DNA of 7,217 bases from Anaerolineales bacterium (GTDB lineage Bacteria > Chloroflexota > Anaerolineae > Anaerolineales > UBA6663): assembly GCA_016789245.1 (NCBI GenBank), contig JAEURM010000100.1, forward strand, positions 1 through 7,217, written 5' to 3'. Made by a program: the position numbers and the translations under genes. A model generated the notes under the pieces. The model saw nothing but the letters and a program-made list of their open reading frames with translations, was not told the origin of the DNA and made no database searches. Below, in pieces: positions 1,600 through 7,217 of this stretch (position 1 is the first letter of the stretch; each line of letters starts with the position of its first letter).

Positions 1600-2931
1600 A
1601 TGACGCGGCTTTCTCGTTTGCAAACAGCTTTGGTGGTGGGCGCGGTATTGCTGGCCATGTGGGTTCTTGCGGCTCAGCCCGGCCCAGCCGCCTCGGCGCA
1701 ATTTAGCCTTAGCCCCACACCTACTCCAATAAAACCCATCTCTATGCCCCTGCCGCGCCCAGAAATTGGGCTGACGTACGGCGGGCTAATGGCCGCCCAA
1801 AACGGGCCGTGCGTGGGCATGTTTGAAACGCGCGCCACTGGCCGCTGTACGCACGGCCCAGACCCGGTGCCGGCTGGCTACAGCCTTTTGCAAGACGTAG
1901 CGCCGGTGCTAGAAACGGAACTAAAGTTAGTTCAGCCGCTGGCCACCTGTGACGGCGATGGCGTGAGTGGCAACCGTGTGCAGGTGATGTATGTGCGCGC
2001 CTCAGACCGCACAGATAGATTTGCGACGTATGAGAACTCCATCAAAACGTGGGCCAACGCCGCCGATGATATTTATTATCAAAGTGCGGTAGAAACGGGC
2101 GGTTCGCGCCGTATCCGCTTTGTGCATGATGGCAGTTGCGAACCGACTGTGCTGAATGTGGTGGTGGCCGCCACGGCGGATGATGATTTTGATGCCACCA
2201 TTGTGGCTTTGGAGGCCCAAGGCTACAACGCCACCAACCGCATGTATATGATTTTTATGGACGCCTCCGGTGTGGGGATTTGCGGTATTGGCACGCTTTG
2301 GAGTGATGACCGACCCACCAGCAACAACTGGAACAACGCTGGCCCGGCGTATGGCCGCACGGACGCGGGTTGCTGGGGCGGCGGTGTGCCCGCACACGAA
2401 CTGATGCACAACTTGGGCGGCGTGCAACTCTCCGCCCCGCATTCAAGCGGTGGCTACCATTGTACGGATGAGTGGGACCGGATGTGTTACAAAGACTTGC
2501 CGTTGAATCCAACCATGCAGTATCTCTGTACCAACAGTGCGCTGGATAACCGCTTTGATTGCAATGATGATGATTATTACAACACCAACCCCGCCGTAGG
2601 TAGTTACTTAGCAGATCATTGGAACGCGGCTAACAACCAATTTTTAATTGGCGGTAACGGTGGGCCAACCAGCACGCCGACTAATACACGGACACCCACC
2701 AGTACGCGTACGCCCACCAATACTCGCACGCCTACAAACACTCGGACTGGTTCTCCCACCGCCACGGGCACGTCCACGCAAACAGGCACGCCCACTCAAA
2801 CCGCAACACCTTCCCCAACGGTCACGGCTTCTAGCACCAGTACAGCTACGGCCACAGCCACTCTCACCCACACTCCCACCGCCACTCCGGTGCTAGACCA
2901 AAAGCTATTCTTGCCAATAGTTGAACGCTAA
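1600..2931 (+). CDS. Secreted zincin-like metalloprotease with Thr/Pro-rich linker and C-terminal tail
   Basis: The 443-residue protein begins with a Sec signal peptide: Arg residues at 3 and 6, a hydrophobic core at about 9-25, and a likely AxA cleavage site near residue 33 (AASA). A Cys-rich extracellular domain of about 300 residues follows. It contains HELMH (His266, Glu267, His270), the zinc-binding and catalytic motif of zincins, followed by NLGG. The canonical metzincin third ligand (HExxHxxGxxH) is absent: position 276 is Gln. His287 in GGYHC, or His281, probably takes that role. MCY at 295-297 could be the Met-turn. Residues 356 to about 431 are a Thr/Pro/Ser linker without obvious structure. 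The protein ends in [12 protein letters not shown] (432-443), which resembles a recurring tail after such linkers in Chloroflexota exported proteins, as I recall. The zincin motif and signal peptide are seen; surface anchoring and the substrate are inferred. Confidence 0.8.
2686..2739 (+). repeat. Three tandem hexapeptide repeats (TRTPT[S/N]) in the linker
   Basis: Three consecutive 18-bp units encode [12 protein letters not shown] and TRTPTN, with a degraded fourth from 2740. Codons differ between copies (ACA/ACG/ACT for Thr, CGG/CGT/CGC for Arg). The repeat is therefore kept at protein level and is not a fresh DNA duplication. It is a spacer, possibly a target for glycosylation of threonines. 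Confidence 0.8.
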
Positions 2932-2937
2932 ACAAAA

Positions 2938-2969
2938 CGCGCCGCCTAAATTTTAGGCGGCGCGATTTT
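2938..2969. terminator. Bidirectional intrinsic terminator between convergent genes
   Basis: Arms 2938-2948 (CGCGCCGCCTA) and 2954-2964 are perfect inverted copies forming an 11-bp GC-rich stem with loop AATTT. The palindrome can even be extended to 13 bp around one base. TTTT follows at 2966-2969 on the plus strand, and AAAA at 2934-2937 gives a T-run on the minus strand. It lies between the metalloprotease stop (2931) and the MOSC gene stop (2992), so it can end transcription from both sides. Confidence 0.9.
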
Positions 2970-2991: not shown

Positions 2992-3549
2992 TCAATACGC
3001 CGGTTGGCTGGGCAACTCTGCGCGCACCGGCTCGCCCGCCGCCAAAGGGCCGGGCAATTCCACCACCGTAATGATGCCGCGTTTATGCAGGGCCGCTTTG
3101 GGAAATAGTGAGGCTGACTTAATCAGCGTTGGAAATTGCGCTTGCAAAACTTTACCCGGGCCAGTGCACGGTTCGTTCTCACCGCTCACCACCAGCACCG
3201 TTCCCCGGCCAAAAAACAGCCGCGTGCCAATGGGCAAAAGCGTAAAGCGCGGCAAGCCGCTTACCAACACATTGGCACCCAACCACTCCGGCAGAACTTC
3301 TGGCACGTTGAGGGCGGCGGCTACTTCCGCTAAATCTTCCACAGAAACCAACGTTACCTGCCGTTCATTGCGGATGAGAGTGCCGCGTGGGAAGTGCGGC
3401 ACTCGCCCATCGGCGGGCCGCGTAAAACCGGCGTGCTTATCACCGGCCACGCCTTCAAAGTTTAGTTCAATCTCTGGCTGGTGGGTGGTAACCAGCGATT
3501 GCGCCGCTTGGCCCACCAACACTGCCTCCACTTTGCCGTTCAACGTCAT
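2992..3549 (-). CDS. MOSC domain-containing protein
   Basis: This 185-residue protein is a stand-alone MOSC domain (molybdenum cofactor sulfurase C-terminal family, related to YiiM and YuaD). Such proteins bind molybdenum cofactor or handle sulfur and take part in reduction or detoxification; a precise reaction is not assigned here. Visible family marks are GDKHAGFTR (36-44), NERQVTLVS (61-69), GANVLVSGLP (91-100), the conserved cysteine in ENEPCTGPG (Cys128), and KRGI (156-159). Length is normal for single-domain members. ATG at 3549 overlaps the stop of the upstream lipoprotein esterase gene as ATGA, which suggests translational coupling. It is the last gene of the run and is followed by the terminator at 2938-2969. 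Its partnership with an esterase lipoprotein does not suggest an obvious shared pathway. Confidence 0.88.
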   Translation of the reverse strand: MTLNGKVEAVLVGQAAQSLVTTHQPEIELNFEGVAGDKHAGFTRPADGRVPHFPRGTLIRNERQVTLVSVEDLAEVAAALNVPEVLPEWLGANVLVSGLPRFTLLPIGTRLFFGRGTVLVVSGENEPCTGPGKVLQAQFPTLIKSASLFPKAALHKRGIITVVELPGPLAAGEPVRAELPSQPAY

Positions 3550-4496
3550 GGCGTTAATTGCTCCACCTCCGGCGGCGCAAAGTCTTCATTGCGCCAATCC
3601 GCCGCATAAAATTTGAGATAGTCTTGCACGTGCGCGGCCCAATAATTTTCCGTGTGCCCGCCCGCCTGCACCACCAACGTGTGCTCAATCTTAGACCAAG
3701 TGAAGACTTGACCCAGCCACAGCGGACTTCGCAACGTGGCATCGTTCTCGCCGCTATCAATGTAAAACACCGGCTTGGGTTTGTTCTTCAACTGCCGCAC
3801 CCATTCCAGCAAATTGTTTTCATCACCGTAAAACACGGCCGGGCTGTGCAAGCCCGCACGGCTAAACGTTTCTGGATAATGCAAAGCAAAATGTACGGCC
3901 CAGCCGCCGCCGCGTGAAAGGCCGCCCACCGCCCGTGCCTCGCGCACGGCGTAGGTACGGTAGTTCGCATCTATGTACGGCACGATCTCTTTCACCAGCG
4001 CCGGGTCAAAGCGCTCATCCTTGCGCTCCCATGGCAGAACAATAATCAGCGGTGCAATCTGGCCCGAGGCAATAAGTTTGTCCGCCGCCGTGAGCAAACC
4101 TACGCGCTCCCACTGGTCTGCGCGGAAGCCCTGGCCATGCAACATGTACAACACCGGGTAACGCCGGTTCAACGCTTCATAACATGGCGGTACATACACG
4201 CGCGCATCAATATCGTATGGAAAAACATCCGAGGGGAGGGTAATGGAAACCGTGGTGCCGGAAACCAGAGCGGGGTTGCACGCGGGTTTGGGAGTGGCAG
4301 ACGGCGGCGCGGTGGGCGTGGGAGGTGCGGTGGCCGTAGGCTGGGCCGTTGGAACAGCGGGCGTAGCCGTGCGGCGTACAGTGGGCGTGGCGTTGGCTCC
4401 AGCCGCCTGCGCCACTGCTTCAACCGGCGCGGAGGTTGCCGGCGCACAAGCCGCCAAAACCAACGCCGCAAAAATTAATAAAAGCCACCAACGCAT
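3546..4496 (-). CDS. Lipoprotein serine esterase (esterase D/PF00756-like alpha/beta hydrolase)
   Basis: The predicted 316-residue protein is an exported lipoprotein: two Trp after the starting MR, a hydrophobic segment, then lipobox LAAC with the lipidated Cys at 17. Residues of about 25-72 form an Ala/Thr/Pro linker that would hold the enzyme away from the membrane. The alpha/beta hydrolase domain follows, with VLYMLHGQG (oxyanion-loop HG, about 115-123), the nucleophile elbow GLSRGG with Ser194, a likely acid near YIDSGEND (Asp247 or Asp252) and His281 in GGHTENYW. This is the pattern of the esterase D / enterochelin esterase / mycolyltransferase superfamily, so ester cleavage outside the cytoplasm is likely; the substrate is unknown. 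ATG at 4496 is chosen over TTG at 4505 because it gives a compact signal peptide and the TTG overlaps a good -10 box. There is no Shine-Dalgarno; the mRNA may be leaderless. Confidence 0.85.
   Translation of the reverse strand: MRWWLLLIFAALVLAACAPATSAPVEAVAQAAGANATPTVRRTATPAVPTAQPTATAPPTPTAPPSATPKPACNPALVSGTTVSITLPSDVFPYDIDARVYVPPCYEALNRRYPVLYMLHGQGFRADQWERVGLLTAADKLIASGQIAPLIIVLPWERKDERFDPALVKEIVPYIDANYRTYAVREARAVGGLSRGGGWAVHFALHYPETFSRAGLHSPAVFYGDENNLLEWVRQLKNKPKPVFYIDSGENDATLRSPLWLGQVFTWSKIEHTLVVQAGGHTENYWAAHVQDYLKFYAADWRNEDFAPPEVEQLTP
3561..3570 (-). promoter_or_regulatory. Shine-Dalgarno region of the MOSC gene inside the upstream gene
   Basis: On the minus strand GGAGG (3570-3566) and GGAG (3564-3561) lie within the last codons of the lipoprotein gene. 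The second is 11 bases before the ATG at 3549. Together with the ATGA overlap this supports coupled translation. Confidence 0.5.
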
Positions 4497-4504
4497 AACG
4501 CCCA

Positions 4505-4533
4505 ACTTTAGGCGCGCGCGGGCGTTTGGTCAA
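4505..4533 (-). promoter_or_regulatory. Promoter of the lipoprotein esterase gene (TTGACC-17-TAAAGT)
   Basis: On the minus strand TTGACC (4533-4528) matches five of six -35 bases. TAAAGT (4510-4505) matches four of six -10 bases, and the spacer is exactly 17 bp. Transcription would begin around 4497-4499, within a few bases of the ATG at 4496, which explains the missing Shine-Dalgarno. It lies 12 bp downstream of the CACGAAT palindrome. Confidence 0.55.
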
Positions 4534-4545
4534 CTCCCTTGTTTA

Positions 4546-4607
4546 GCCACGAATTGGCACGAATAAACACGAATTCTCATTCGTGATAATTCGTGTTCAT
4601 TCGTGGC
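4546..4607. repeat. 62-bp palindrome of six CACGAAT units at 10-bp period
   Basis: Three direct copies of CACGAAT start at 4548, 4558 and 4568. Three inverted copies (ATTCGTG) start at 4579, 4589 and 4599. Outer GC bases at 4546-4547 and 4606-4607 complete the symmetry around a TCTC centre (4575-4578). All six heptamers are identical, while the 3-bp spacers differ (TGG, AAA, ATA, TTC), so the units and not the spacers are conserved. It starts 8 bp after the esterase stop codon and lies upstream of the next promoter. There is no T-run beside it, so it is not a standard terminator. I recall similar CACGAAT arrays in other bacterial genomes but cannot verify this. Confidence 0.95.
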
Positions 4608-4614
4608 GAACCAC

Positions 4615-5346
4615 CTAAAATTTGGCACCGAGATAATAAGGCAACATCGCCCGCCAAGTGGGCCAATCGTGCGGCATATCAAAGCCCCACAAATCCAGCA
4701 CATGTGGAATTTCCTTGCTGGCCAGCACGTTCGCCATATCACGCGAAGATTGCGGATTCTCGTAATTGCCTTGCCCGCTCAAAATGTAAATGTGCTTCTT
4801 CTGGCGCAAAAGCGGCAAATAGCGGTCATCGTTCAAATTGGGAATGTAAGCCAGCGGGTCATTGAAATACACGTGCTCGTTGTAAAACCCATCGGCAAAG
4901 TTGCGGATATTAAAGTTGCCGCTCAGTGCAATCATGCCGTCAAACAAATCTGGCCGGCGGCAGAGCTGATTGGCCGCGTGGTAACCGCCCAAACTAGCCC
5001 CGCACGTAATAATGCCAAACCGCCCTTGGCAACTGTTCCAAATGTACGGCACTACTTCTTCGGTTACGTAATCGTTGTACAGCTTCTGCATCCACGCGCG
5101 GTGGCCGGGGTGCACGTCTTTGTTCATCCACGCATCGCGGTTAATGCTGTTAATAGAAAACACCTTCACCTTGCCGCCATCAATATGCTCCGCAATCGCA
5201 TCAATTAAGTGAAAGCGCTCATATTCCAAAAAATCGGCGGCGGCGGTAGGGAACATCAGCAGGGGAAAGCCGTAGTGCCCATACGTCACAATTTCCATGC
5301 GCTTATCCAGCGCGGGGCTGTGCCAAGAGTCAATGTGGCGGTGCAT
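4615..5346 (-). CDS. Esterase-fold alpha/beta hydrolase, paralogue B
   Basis: This 243-residue protein has no signal peptide and is probably cytoplasmic. It belongs to the esterase D-like alpha/beta hydrolases (PF00756 / COG4947-like by recall). The nucleophile elbow is CGASLGGYHAA with Ser118. The catalytic His is probably His226 in MPHDWPTW, and the acid probably lies in SGQGNYEN (Glu196 region). Other marks are the N-terminal SPALDKRMEI (10-19), FPTAAADF (32-39), HPGHRAW (79-85) and ADGFYNEHVYFNDP (151-164). It shares nearly all of these with the neighbouring gene at 5435-6154, so the two are tandem duplicates. The start MHR matches the paralogue's MHR and supports the ATG at 5346. Seven A residues and no Shine-Dalgarno precede the ATG. 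Palindromic repeat elements flank the gene on both sides. The substrate is unknown; an acyl or small ester substrate is an inference from the fold. Confidence 0.82.
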   Translation of the reverse strand: MHRHIDSWHSPALDKRMEIVTYGHYGFPLLMFPTAAADFLEYERFHLIDAIAEHIDGGKVKVFSINSINRDAWMNKDVHPGHRAWMQKLYNDYVTEEVVPYIWNSCQGRFGIITCGASLGGYHAANQLCRRPDLFDGMIALSGNFNIRNFADGFYNEHVYFNDPLAYIPNLNDDRYLPLLRQKKHIYILSGQGNYENPQSSRDMANVLASKEIPHVLDLWGFDMPHDWPTWRAMLPYYLGAKF

Positions 5347-5356
5347 TTTTTTTACC

Positions 5357-5426
5357 AGTGTCGGGTGTCAAAGTATCAAGTGTCAAGCTTGGCGAAGCGA
5401 CACTCGACACTCGACACTCAACACTT
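5357..5426. repeat. 70-bp palindrome of GTGTC-type heptamer repeats
   Basis: On the left, four heptads AGTGTCG, GGTGTCA, AGTATCA and AGTGTCA run from 5357 to 5385, with one extra A at 5371. On the right, GACACTC occurs three times in tandem (5399, 5406, 5413), followed by AACACTT (5420-5426). The right half is the inverted counterpart of the left half. The centre 5387-5398 forms a small stem (GCTT with AAGC) around GGCG. The element fills most of the gap between the two paralogous esterase genes. TTGACA hexamers arise twice from the repeat on the minus strand (5386-5381 and 5371-5366), but I find no matching -10 box. Confidence 0.92.
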
Positions 5427-5434
5427 ACTTTTAG

Positions 5435-6154
5435 TTAGTCATGTCCGTTGATATACAGCTGGATCATCTGATGCCAGTACGGCCAATCATGGCTCCAGCC
5501 GTCCCACTCGCGCAGGGCGTTGCCAATGCCTTTGCCCCACAGTTGGCCACTAAACCAGCGATTGTGCTCAATGTTCGGGTCATCGCGGCCCAACGCCATG
5601 ATGATATCCAACCGCCGGAGCATTTCTAAACGGCCCCAATCATGCTCACGCGGCAGGTAGAGCGCCGGGTTGTGATAATAGACGGTATCGTTCACATAGC
5701 CATCTGCCCACTTGCCAATATCATACAGGCCGCTCAGGGCAATGATGCGATTGGTAATATCTGGATGCCGGAGGCCAAAGTTCATGGCGTGGTAAGCGCC
5801 AAAACTAGCGCCTGTCACCATTAAATACGGTGTGGGGTTCTTGTGGTACATCAGCGGCAGAACTTCCTGCACGATGTAATCTTCATATTGCTGGTGCCGC
5901 CACGCCCGCCCGCCCGGGTGCGCCCAGCGCGCGTACCAGCTTTCAGCGTCCACGCTATCCACACACACCATTTGGAGCCAGCCGCGCTCCAATTGTTCCC
6001 ACAGCGCGCCCGTCATGCCACGGTCTTCCCACTCATAATACTTGCCCATTGAAGTGGGAAACACCAACATGCGCGCGCCGCCATGCCCAAAGATGAGTAG
6101 TTCCATGTGGCGGTTTAAGTTCGGGCTGTACCAGCGATGATATTCTCGGTGCAT
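5435..6154 (-). CDS. Esterase-fold alpha/beta hydrolase, paralogue A
   Basis: This 239-residue protein, probably cytoplasmic with no signal peptide, is the closest visible relative of the gene at 4615-5346. Shared motifs run along the whole length: SPNLNRHMEL (10-19), FPTSMGKYYEWE (32-43), HPGGRAW (79-85), the nucleophile elbow TGASFGAYHAM with Ser117, SGLYDI...ADGYVNDTVYYHNP (141-163) and the catalytic His222 in WSHDWPYW. The acid is likely Asp191 or Asp192 in ALGRDDPN. The two copies differ clearly outside these motifs, so the duplication is not recent. Length fits the compact esterase family. The protease gene upstream (stop at 6221) is separated by a 66-bp gap filled by a palindromic repeat. 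No Shine-Dalgarno is visible before the ATG at 6154. Function beyond hydrolysis of an ester cannot be told. Confidence 0.82.
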   Translation of the reverse strand: MHREYHRWYSPNLNRHMELLIFGHGGARMLVFPTSMGKYYEWEDRGMTGALWEQLERGWLQMVCVDSVDAESWYARWAHPGGRAWRHQQYEDYIVQEVLPLMYHKNPTPYLMVTGASFGAYHAMNFGLRHPDITNRIIALSGLYDIGKWADGYVNDTVYYHNPALYLPREHDWGRLEMLRRLDIIMALGRDDPNIEHNRWFSGQLWGKGIGNALREWDGWSHDWPYWHQMIQLYINGHD

Positions 6155-6160
6155 AAAGGT

Positions 6161-6222
6161 TCACGTATTGCGTATAGCGTGTTGCGTAGGGCCAAACGGA
6201 ATACGCAACCCGCACTACGTCT
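6161..6222. repeat. Imperfect palindrome of TTGCGTA-type heptamer repeats
   Basis: Left side heptads are TCACGTA (6161), TTGCGTA (6168), TAGCGTG (6175) and TTGCGTA (6182). The right side holds inverted units TACGCAA (6202), CCCGCAC (6209) and TACGTCT (6216). The centre is GC-rich (6189-6201, GGGCCAAACGGAA). Pairing of the inner TTGCGTA/TACGCAA units is perfect, while the outer units match less well and the left side has one extra unit. It fills the gap between the esterase start (6154) and the protease stop (6221) almost exactly, and its last bases overlap the stop codon. Confidence 0.85.
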
Positions 6223-7217
6223 AAATTTCTATCAGTGAGTAAAACTCCCCCAAACCATCTTCTAGGCGGTGGGGATTTTCTGGGTCAATCGTCCAGCGCG
6301 TGCGGTCAATCAGGAATTTGTAGGCGTGCTGGCCGCGCGCAAAGGCGGGAACCGTTAGCCGCCACGCGCCCGGCTCATATTGGTGCAGCTCATAGCCGTA
6401 CGGCAACCAATCATTGAAGGAGCCTACCACCGCTACCTGCCGCGCATCTTTATCATAATAGTGAAAGGTGATGGTGTGTTGCGGCGAACGCGGCACGTAA
6501 TCATGCTGAGCCGCGAGGCGCAGAGCGGCCGCCACCGCGCGCGCACCATTCACCACGCCGTGGCCTTGTTTCTCTTTGGGCACATGCGGCAGTAATTCCG
6601 CTGTGGCCGTAAGCAGTTCTTTCACCTGCGCGGGCGTGAGGGTGGGGTTGGCTTCCAGCATTTGCGCCACCACAGCGGAAACGATGGGCGCGGCCATGCT
6701 GGTGCCATCCACATGTTGGTAGTGCGGGTGGATGAACTTGGCTTCCACCATGCGTTCACGGATGGCGGCGCGGATTTCCGGCAGGCTGAGGCTGAGTGTT
6801 TTCTTGCTAAAGCGCCGCTGGGCTTCGGGCGAGTGCAATTGTTTGCGCAGTTCTCTATCGCTCAAGCCTTCTAGCATCCATAGGAACATGGCTTCATTGT
6901 GCGTGGATGTTTTGGGCAACATGGGCGCGGCCAACCACAACGCGGGCGCAATTACATCTGGCTTGCTCACGCCGTGTGCGCCGTGGCCGTAACTGCTCCA
7001 ATACATTTTGCGCCGCGCGGCGTCCAACGTATTTTGGTCATCTAGCCCGCCCACGGTGATAGCGGAGGGCGCGGTGGCCGGCGGAATCAGCATTTCACTG
7101 CCGCTGTTGCCCGCCGCGCAAACCACGTTGAGGCCCAATTCCACCGCGCGCTCCACGCGTTCATCTAATTCCGTTAGGCGGCCTTTGCTCGGGTCATCAC
7201 CGCCCAAAGAAATGTTC
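6221..7217 (-). CDS. Subtilisin-like S8 serine protease fused to a glycogen-binding-like E-set domain (5' partial)
   Basis: The last 331 residues are visible; the start, with catalytic Asp and His, lies beyond 7217. The frame is open to the edge (NISLGG, a typical stretch after the catalytic His), so the TTG at 7207 is not a start. Numbering from the first visible Asn, CAAGNSG (33-39) holds the oxyanion Asn37, DVIAP (87-91) follows, and GTSMAAP (171-177) holds the nucleophile Ser173. Between DVIAP and GTSMAAP are about 79 residues, far more than in subtilisin, forming a charged, probably helical insert (about 97-168). Residues 247-331 form an isoamylase/AMPK-type E-set domain (CBM48-like): VAVVGSFNDWLPYG, YKFLIDRTRWTIDPENP. 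This domain usually binds glycogen-like glucans or serves as a protein-interaction module. Cell location cannot be judged without the N-terminus. The gene precedes two esterase genes on the same strand. Confidence 0.88.
   Translation of the reverse strand, partial: NISLGGDDPSKGRLTELDERVERAVELGLNVVCAAGNSGSEMLIPPATAPSAITVGGLDDQNTLDAARRKMYWSSYGHGAHGVSKPDVIAPALWLAAPMLPKTSTHNEAMFLWMLEGLSDRELRKQLHSPEAQRRFSKKTLSLSLPEIRAAIRERMVEAKFIHPHYQHVDGTSMAAPIVSAVVAQMLEANPTLTPAQVKELLTATAELLPHVPKEKQGHGVVNGARAVAAALRLAAQHDYVPRSPQHTITFHYYDKDARQVAVVGSFNDWLPYGYELHQYEPGAWRLTVPAFARGQHAYKFLIDRTRWTIDPENPHRLEDGLGEFYSLIEI

What the first reader, a model, noticed from the sequence alone, without database searches (positions are those of the whole stretch)
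4546..6222. Three sequence-unrelated palindromes with one shared plan fill three consecutive gaps
The gaps 6155-6220, 5347-5434 and 4506-4614 each hold a palindrome made of short tandem units and their inverted copies: TTGCGTA (7-bp step), GTGTC (7-bp step) and CACGAAT (10-bp step). The units differ, but length (about 60-70 bp), symmetry and intergenic position agree. This suggests one class of non-coding elements with many sequence families, perhaps spread by a common enzyme or used as binding arrays. Tandem heptanucleotide repeats (STRR) are known in heterocystous cyanobacteria, but those are not described as inverted arrays, as far as I recall.
Basis: partly seen in the sequence, partly recalled or inferred. 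Interest (0 to 1): 0.8.

Follow-up and report, generated by a model that had tools for sequence, protein, structure and literature searches.

The report
Palindromic heptad arrays at gene ends
Three short palindromes built of repeated 7-10 letter words sit just behind three neighbouring genes, and related bacteria carry the same kind of element at many gene ends with many different words, nearly always in the same left-right order and sometimes with one word swapped for another at the same gene.

Summary
The three elements are real (0 of 3000 shuffles of each gap reach the observed score) and belong to a class. In stretches of four array-rich Chloroflexota genomes such elements occur about once per 5-8 kb, against 0 in shuffles. 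237 elements show 131 distinct units, mostly of 7-8 nt. In co-directional gaps they hug the upstream stop codon (133 of 167 start within -25..+20 nt). At orthologous gaps of relatives presence is kept (P(element|element) 0.70 vs 0.17), yet at least 8 of 31 gaps hold clearly different units in different genomes. Polarity is nearly fixed: GAGATT-left 1713 overlapping matches vs 2 reversed; TGCGTA-left, a window unit, 364 vs 1. The kind is known: heptad repeats (STRR), some hairpin-forming, in cyanobacteria, and inverted heptad pairs in Xanthomonas. New here are host group, density, number of families, unit replacement and polarity. Arms show no excess of G-U pairs and no T-tracts, so a selected terminator is doubtful. 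I favour REP-like dispersal of palindromes plus fast churning of units, tolerated or used as gene-end hairpins. Function is untested.

The parts
4548..4605 (.). palindromic array, unit CACGAAT, 10-nt step (3 direct + 3 inverted units)
   Evidence: 0 of 3000 shuffles of gap 4506-4614 reach its score; RNA fold z -6.1; starts 9 nt after the stop of 4615-5346 on the minus strand
5357..5425 (.). palindromic array, unit AGTGTC(A/G), 7-nt step
   Evidence: 0 of 3000 shuffles; fold z -7.8; 9 nt after the stop of 5435-6154 and 10 nt before the start of 4615-5346
6164..6219 (.). palindromic array, unit TTGCGTA, 7-nt step, decayed
   Evidence: 0 of 3000 shuffles; fold z -2.1; 1 nt after the stop of 6221-7216 and 9 nt before the start of 5435-6154
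6221..7216 (-). S8 peptidase with CBM48-like C-terminus; gene upstream of the TTGCGTA element (runs off the window)
   Evidence: Pfam PF00082, PF02922
5435..6154 (-). esterase-family protein B (PF00756); gene upstream of the AGTGTC element; used as anchor to find orthologous gaps
   Evidence: 4266 homologues, best 120 listed; best 80 of 381 loci kept
4615..5346 (-). esterase-family protein A (PF00756); gene upstream of the CACGAAT element
3546..4505 (-). esterase (PF00756), lipoprotein-like N-terminus (by eye); downstream of the CACGAAT element

Best explanation
The three palindromes are members of a large, fast-evolving class of STRR-like palindromic heptad arrays. Plan: [unit]n - short spacer - [reverse-complement unit]m, with a unit of mostly 7-8 nt. 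Shown: they are numerous in relatives, sit mostly at the 3' ends of genes, have nearly fixed polarity for each unit tested, and keep their place while the unit is changed or replaced in close relatives. Inferred: families spread as whole palindromes (REP/MITE-like copying, visible as a shared spacer in genome G023). Repeated loss and gain of units by slippage or template switching within and between the arms then re-sorts the units, drifts the unit base by base, and erases the ancestral spacer; polarity survives because each copy descends from a palindrome. They persist just behind stop codons, either because a hairpin there is useful (intercistronic boundary: transcript end protection or translational insulation, as suggested for STRR) or because insertion there does least harm.
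For: Excess over shuffles: 85 vs 1.7; 50, 37, 33 and 48 vs 0 in four genomes. Place: 133 of 167 co-directional elements start within -25..+20 of a stop, 93 of 167 fill the gap; in 49 roomy gaps 25 lie in the first tenth after the stop, KS p 1e-9. Presence kept, unit changed: pair states EE_same 95, EE_diff 29, E- 104, -- 258 over 73 gaps; of 31 gaps with an element in two or more genomes, 8 hold clearly different units on inspection (35, 46, 47, 48, 58, 100, 109, 112), gap 112 three of them. Polarity: 1713 vs 2 and 364 vs 1 matches in 52 genomes; 1484 vs 96 element pairs. Unit drift with polarity: unit pairs one mismatch apart 116 same orientation vs 18 opposite. Copying: 8 of 15 G023 elements share a spacer within 2 mismatches (0 of 20 G026 controls) while 35-nt flanks share at most 13 nt.
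Against: In G001, G002, G022, G005 and G046 pairs of elements share 20 nt or more about as often as unit-shuffled versions (6/8, 16/23, 19/15, 3/3, 4/2 real/shuffled; at 28 nt or more 5 vs 1 in all), and GAGATT spacers are nearly all different (35 distinct of 38). So whole-element copying is clear only in G023, with a shared 20-nt arm in 7 of 20 G026 elements. No enzyme or target-site signature was found. Descent alone does not explain why the 5' arm is purine/G-rich across 131 units (AG 81 vs CT 13). 19 of 107 divergent gaps also hold an element. Hairpin use is not supported by wobble tolerance (G-U 140 vs A-C 146), and unit order in the arms is only weakly mirrored (mean rank 0.553, p 0.04).
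Confidence: 0.55

Rival explanations
1. Gene-end RNA hairpins under selection: the arrays are transcription terminators or 3' stabilisers in which only base pairing matters, so the sequence is free to change.
For: Hugging of stop codons and conserved presence; strong RNA folds of two window elements; at gaps 38 and 117 some relatives carry a plain, unrelated hairpin where others carry an array; fewer elements per kb in divergent gaps (0.42 vs 0.96 co-directional).
Against: No T-tract: TTTT within 12 nt after the element in 15 of 167, AAAA in 20. Mismatched stem positions show no excess of G-U over A-C on the coding strand, 140 vs 146, though the convergent/divergent control was uneven (27 vs 54), so the test is noisy. 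Unit order barely mirrored. Fixed polarity is not needed for a hairpin. The window's convergent gap uses an ordinary T-tailed terminator (2938-2964).
Confidence: 0.25
2. REP/RAYT-type or other transposase-driven mobile palindromes, each family with its own transposase.
For: Dispersed copies with shared spacer and unrelated flanks in G023; presence/absence at gaps 12 and 15.
Against: Y1_Tnp in 18 of 20 genomes at 1-8 matches; array-poor G017 has 1, array-bearing G006 has 0. Most families examined show little whole-element copying. REP end tags were not tested.
Confidence: 0.12
3. Arrays are written de novo at broken ends by a repeat-adding polymerase, telomere-like, and the two ends are then joined head to head.
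For: One unit length class (7-8 nt, 198 of 237) whatever the sequence; head-to-head polarity with purine/G-rich 5' arm; shared units with unshared spacers; replacement at the same site.
Against: Shared spacers in G023; a weaker purine bias also in plain stems (57 vs 26); no enzyme sought or found; periods of 9-10 nt exist (33 of 237).
Confidence: 0.07
4. Protein-binding arrays (regulator or nucleoid protein sites).
For: Repeated, phased units.
Against: 131 distinct units and different units at the same gap in relatives; fewer in divergent gaps, where regulators usually act.
Confidence: 0.04

Closest known systems
STRR heptanucleotide repeats of heterocystous cyanobacteria (PMC2670836 passages; Mazel 1990 and Vioque 1997 recalled, not seen)
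   Same: 7-bp tandem units, intergenic, can form hairpins; PMC2670836 describes one near a gene's 3' end and mentions others between hupS and hupL. My detector finds 2 palindromic arrays in 150 kb of a T. variabilis plasmid, one 8 nt after a stop and 25 nt before a start.
   Different: Here palindromic arrays are dense, units number >100 with 8-10 nt steps too, the hosts are Chloroflexota (also Acidobacteriota and Gemmatimonadota MAGs), and unit change at orthologous gaps is documented.
GGGAATC heptads of Xanthomonas and GGGGA(C/T)T of Nostoc (PMC4692102; passages and section 10 read)
   Same: 70 and 75 convergent (inverted) pairs; mostly intergenic; closer to the 5' neighbour (average 28 nt); few in divergent gaps (7-8%). 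If 'convergent' means GGGAATC-left, polarity is the same (my reading).
   Different: One unit family, discussed as G-quadruplexes; no multi-family class in the parts I read.
TAACTGA repeats of Beggiatoaceae (PMC4679880, passages)
   Same: Heptad arrays, intergenic, some mixed with other heptamers.
   Different: Direct repeats (one inverted case), mostly upstream of start codons, one main unit.
REP/BIME palindromes and RAYTs (PMC3733652, passages; placement of E. coli REPs near stop codons recalled)
   Same: Short dispersed palindromes, several families.
   Different: 20-40 bp with tagged ends, no heptad arms (as described in what I read); RAYT link not found here.
Borg tandem repeats (PMC9879509, passages)
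   Same: Rapidly evolving, independently arising tandem repeats with a base bias (A).
   Different: Head-to-tail, perfect, units of 18-21 nt in the examples seen, archaeal elements, also in ORFs.

Membership tests
STRR (cyanobacterial heptanucleotide repeats) | tandem units of 7 bp | tested here: met
   Two of three window elements have a 7-nt step, the third 10 nt; class: 7 nt in 138 of 237, 8 nt in 60
STRR (cyanobacterial heptanucleotide repeats) | intergenic, many copies per genome | tested here: met
   in relatives; the window's own genome is not held
STRR (cyanobacterial heptanucleotide repeats) | host is a heterocystous cyanobacterium | tested here: not met
   nearest loci are mostly Anaerolineae/Chloroflexota MAGs; so not filed as STRR proper, only as the same kind
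STRR (cyanobacterial heptanucleotide repeats) | palindromic arrangement also occurs in cyanobacteria | tested here: met
   2 arrays in 150 kb of NC_007410 vs 0 shuffled; one is scored inside an ORF called by my script
Intrinsic transcription terminator | hairpin after a stop codon | tested here: met
Intrinsic transcription terminator | run of T after the stem | tested here: not met
   TTTT in 15 of 167
REP element | dispersed copies of one palindrome with shared core | tested here: inconclusive
   yes in G023 (8 of 15 spacers); little sign in five other genomes
REP element | GTAG or CGTC end tag and cognate RAYT | not tested
   tags not scanned; Y1_Tnp counts do not track arrays
MITE / transposon | target-site duplication | tested here: inconclusive
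   filled and empty sites at gaps 12, 15, 96 read by eye, none seen; no systematic test
Rfam RNA families | match to a curated family | tested here: not met
   0 matches at gathering score in the window

The most novel reading that the evidence does not exclude
A dedicated repeat-adding activity (template- or enzyme-specified, 7-8 nt per step, telomere-like) writes genome-specific words onto both 3' ends of breaks at gene ends; the ends are then joined head to head. This would explain fixed polarity, the purine/G-rich 5' arm, shared words without shared spacers, and word replacement at the same gap.
Probability: 0.06. Interest if true: 0.93.

Novelty: new variant of a known kind. Interest (0 to 1): 0.62.

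Why it matters
The origin and use of heptad repeats in bacteria appear to be open: PMC2670836 (2009) calls the STRR function still unknown and PMC4692102 (2015) notes no detailed literature on heptameric repeats. Array-rich Chloroflexota offer many natural replicates per genome, with close relatives in which the same gene end carries different words. That lets copying, slippage, selection for a hairpin and de novo writing be told apart. Fixed polarity is a constraint any model must meet.

Tried and rejected
Chance: rejected. Canonical terminators: no T-tract. RNA-pairing selection: no G-U excess, weak mirror order; not fully excluded. Simple copy-paste for all families: not supported, yet seen in G023 and partly G026. 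Y1 transposase link: no pattern. Rfam: nothing. Literature: four idealised array strings found in 0 papers; searches (lists capped in 21, 56 and 81) gave STRR, Xanthomonas, Beggiatoaceae, REP and Borg papers among others, and no listed title or abstract start described palindromic heptad arrays in Chloroflexota. Most subscription papers are not in that library, so absence from print is not shown.

Results against my reading: ACGGAT and AATCCG show no fixed polarity (5 vs 5 each). The control columns happen to test another unit: ATGCGT-left 302 matches, reversed 7. One CGTGATG element in G001 is reversed. In 71 of 80 esterase-B loci no scoring element follows the stop (9 of 80 do). G017 has 1 element in 198 kb. 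GTGTCAN x3 occurs in only 16 of 301 genomes of the phylum. The convergent/divergent control of the wobble test was uneven, G-U 27 vs A-C 54. My mechanical family criterion flagged 9 of 31 gaps; on inspection three of those (89, 95, 98) are drifted relatives, and two it missed (47, 48) hold different units, so I report 8; the other 20 gaps were not inspected again. Several swapped units share a 4-5 nt core (AGATT at gaps 46 and 112), so drift and replacement are not always separable. Rows dropped: one search left out loci L006, L016, L022, L067 because their genomes were surveyed; searches left out inside-gene elements scoring under 28 (29). Gene calls are by my own ORF script, unvalidated.

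Full report
OBSERVATION. The window (7217 nt) carries a row of minus-strand genes from 7216 down to 2992: S8 peptidase, esterase B, esterase A, esterase lipoprotein, MOSC protein. The three gaps named hold palindromic arrays at 4548-4605, 5357-5425 and 6164-6219. A detector that asks for a tandem of period 5-12 plus an inverted copy within 110 nt scores them 29, 29.5 and 21.5. None of 3000 dinucleotide shuffles of each gap reaches its score. On the minus strand each begins 1-9 nt after a stop codon, and two end 9-10 nt before the next start. The window's convergent gap instead has an ordinary T-tailed terminator at 2938-2964.

RELATIVES. No genome is held for the window. Esterase B has 4266 homologues (best 120 listed). 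An alignment of 46 sequences (window plus 45 homologues) brought the best 80 of 381 loci from named genomes, mostly Chloroflexota MAGs with a few Acidobacteriota, Gemmatimonadota and others. Across window plus 80 loci (1.23 Mb) the detector finds 85 elements of score 22 or more, against 1.7 per shuffle. 23 of 80 loci hold at least one outside genes. Just after the esterase-B stop, 9 of 80 loci hold one: three share AATTATG, while L022, L032, L052, L055, L067 and L069 each have another unit. More loci show half or decayed arrays there by eye, not counted.

DENSITY. Contiguous stretches give 50 elements in 400 kb of G005 (10 scored inside genes), 37 in 199 kb of G001 (4), 33 in 166 kb of G002 (0) and 48 in 240 kb of G022 (5), each against 0 in shuffles. 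G046 gives 27 in 200 kb (8 inside genes), G006 (Acidobacteriota) 11 in 133 kb (7 inside genes; 1 in its shuffle), G017 1 in 198 kb. E. coli K-12 gives 0 in 50 kb and a Trichormus variabilis plasmid 2 in 150 kb. Among 237 elements the period is 7 in 138, 8 in 60, 9 in 19, 10 in 14 and something else in 6; 131 distinct oriented unit consensuses were counted.

PLACE. Of 266 elements pooled, 167 lie in co-directional gaps. 133 of these start within -25..+20 nt of the upstream stop, 96 within -5..+10, and 93 fill the gap. Among 49 co-directional gaps with at least 80 nt to spare, 25 elements lie in the first tenth after the stop (KS p 1e-9). Gaps of 35 nt or more that hold an element: 111 of 427 co-directional, 16 of 79 convergent, 19 of 107 divergent (G001, G002, G022, G005). 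G001, G002 and G022 are relatives, so some elements are orthologous copies.

TURNOVER. 73 gaps of G002 were matched in at least one of G001, G003, G004, G021, G022 by 200-nt flanks. In 12 of them all genomes compared had an element, in 23 some, in 38 none. Over genome pairs (not independent) the states were: both elements with a shared unit 95, both without a shared unit 29, one only 104, neither 258. Hence P(element in B | element in A) = 0.70 and P(element | none) = 0.17. A mechanical criterion (no 6-mer present three times in both) flags 9 of 31 gaps with an element in two or more genomes. I printed those nine plus gaps 47 and 48: 35, 46, 47, 48, 58, 100, 109 and 112 hold clearly different units, 89, 95 and 98 drifted relatives. 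Gap 112 holds three (GAGATT in G001 and G022, CAGATT in G002, GTAATT in G003 and G004) with near-identical flanks and extracted lengths 131-138 nt. Gap-length differences are as small between flagged (median 5 nt) as between same-family pairs (8 nt). At gaps 38 and 117 some relatives have a plain hairpin where others have an array; at 12 and 15 some have nothing.

POLARITY. A palindrome can be built unit-left or complement-left. Element pairs sharing a repeated 6-mer agree 1484 to 96 (14 unclear; orthologous copies included). In 52 whole genomes, GAGATT-left gives 1713 overlapping matches (several per element) in 21 genomes and the reverse 2 in 2 genomes. TGCGTA-left, one of the window's units, gives 364 in 10 genomes and the reverse 1. 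The tools' own control columns amount to a third unit: ATGCGT-left 302, reversed 7. Across 131 units the left arm is purine/G-rich: AG in 81 vs CT in 13, GG 64 vs CC 22. The 5' half is richer in purine in 146 elements and poorer in 21 (of 173, seven genomes), while plain stems in element-free gaps of nine sequence sets show 57 vs 26. Unit pairs one mismatch apart share orientation in 116 cases and oppose in 18, as expected if units drift inside polar palindromes.

COPYING OR NOT. In G001, G002, G022, G005 and G046 exact shared stretches of 20 nt or more are about as frequent as in unit-shuffled versions (48 vs 51 pairs in all); at 28 nt or more there are 5 vs 1. GAGATT elements have 35 distinct spacers of 38. 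In G023, however, 8 of 15 TTGCGTA elements carry a spacer within 2 mismatches of one 11-mer, with unrelated flanks; in G026 7 of 20 share a 20-nt arm. I read this as copying followed by churning, at different ages. Y1_Tnp occurs in 18 of 20 genomes (1-8 matches) without tracking arrays.

RNA OR DNA. If pairing were selected in RNA, G-U should be tolerated over A-C on the coding strand. Counts are 140 and 146 in 165 hairpins; convergent and divergent elements read on the + strand gave 27 and 54, an imbalance I cannot explain, so the test is noisy. Unit order is only weakly mirrored (mean rank 0.553, p 0.04, 144 elements). T-tracts are not enriched. These weaken selection on RNA pairing but do not exclude it.

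KNOWN KINDS. Heptad repeats are known as STRR in cyanobacteria; [quoted passage not shown] PMC4692102 (passages and section 10) reports inverted heptad pairs near gene ends in Xanthomonas. PMC4060949 (passages) finds inverted repeats over-represented in intergenic regions almost everywhere. PMC4284476 (passages) links stem-loops near processing sites of nif transcripts to stability. The window's elements are therefore a variant of a known kind, extended to a new host group with many families, unit replacement and polarity. E. coli REP effects near stop codons are recalled, not read.

LIMITS. Gene calls are by my own script; thresholds are mine; the held genomes are mostly MAGs; neighbouring genomes are not independent; no expression data exist here.

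Noticed in passing
window 2938-2964: Classic bidirectional terminator (12-bp stem, T/A tails) in the convergent gap between 1600-2931 and 2992-3549, unlike the array-filled co-directional gaps.
   Followed up: partly
L006, L010, L016, L019, L043, L060, L062, L065 and others: The palindromic octamer ACGGCCGT recurs many times in several Anaerolineae loci; HIP1-like (recalled), a separate phenomenon from the arrays.
   Followed up: no
G002 gaps 17 and 113: A longer palindrome containing GTCATTCCGAG sits beside or in place of arrays in gene gaps.
   Followed up: no
L006 4455-4488 and L022 16716-16795: A palindrome of AGACCTGACAGGTCT and AGACCTGTCAGGTCT occurs in two different genomes.
   Followed up: no
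window 3546-6154: Three esterase-family (PF00756) genes in a row on one strand, A and B likely paralogues.
   Followed up: no
window 1600-2931: 443-aa protein with no Pfam match and a Thr/Pro-rich repeat tail near its C-terminus.
   Followed up: no
G022, orthologue of G002 gap 48: A second, unrelated palindrome (CTCAGTAG...CTACTGA) appears inserted inside a GAGATT array.
   Followed up: no
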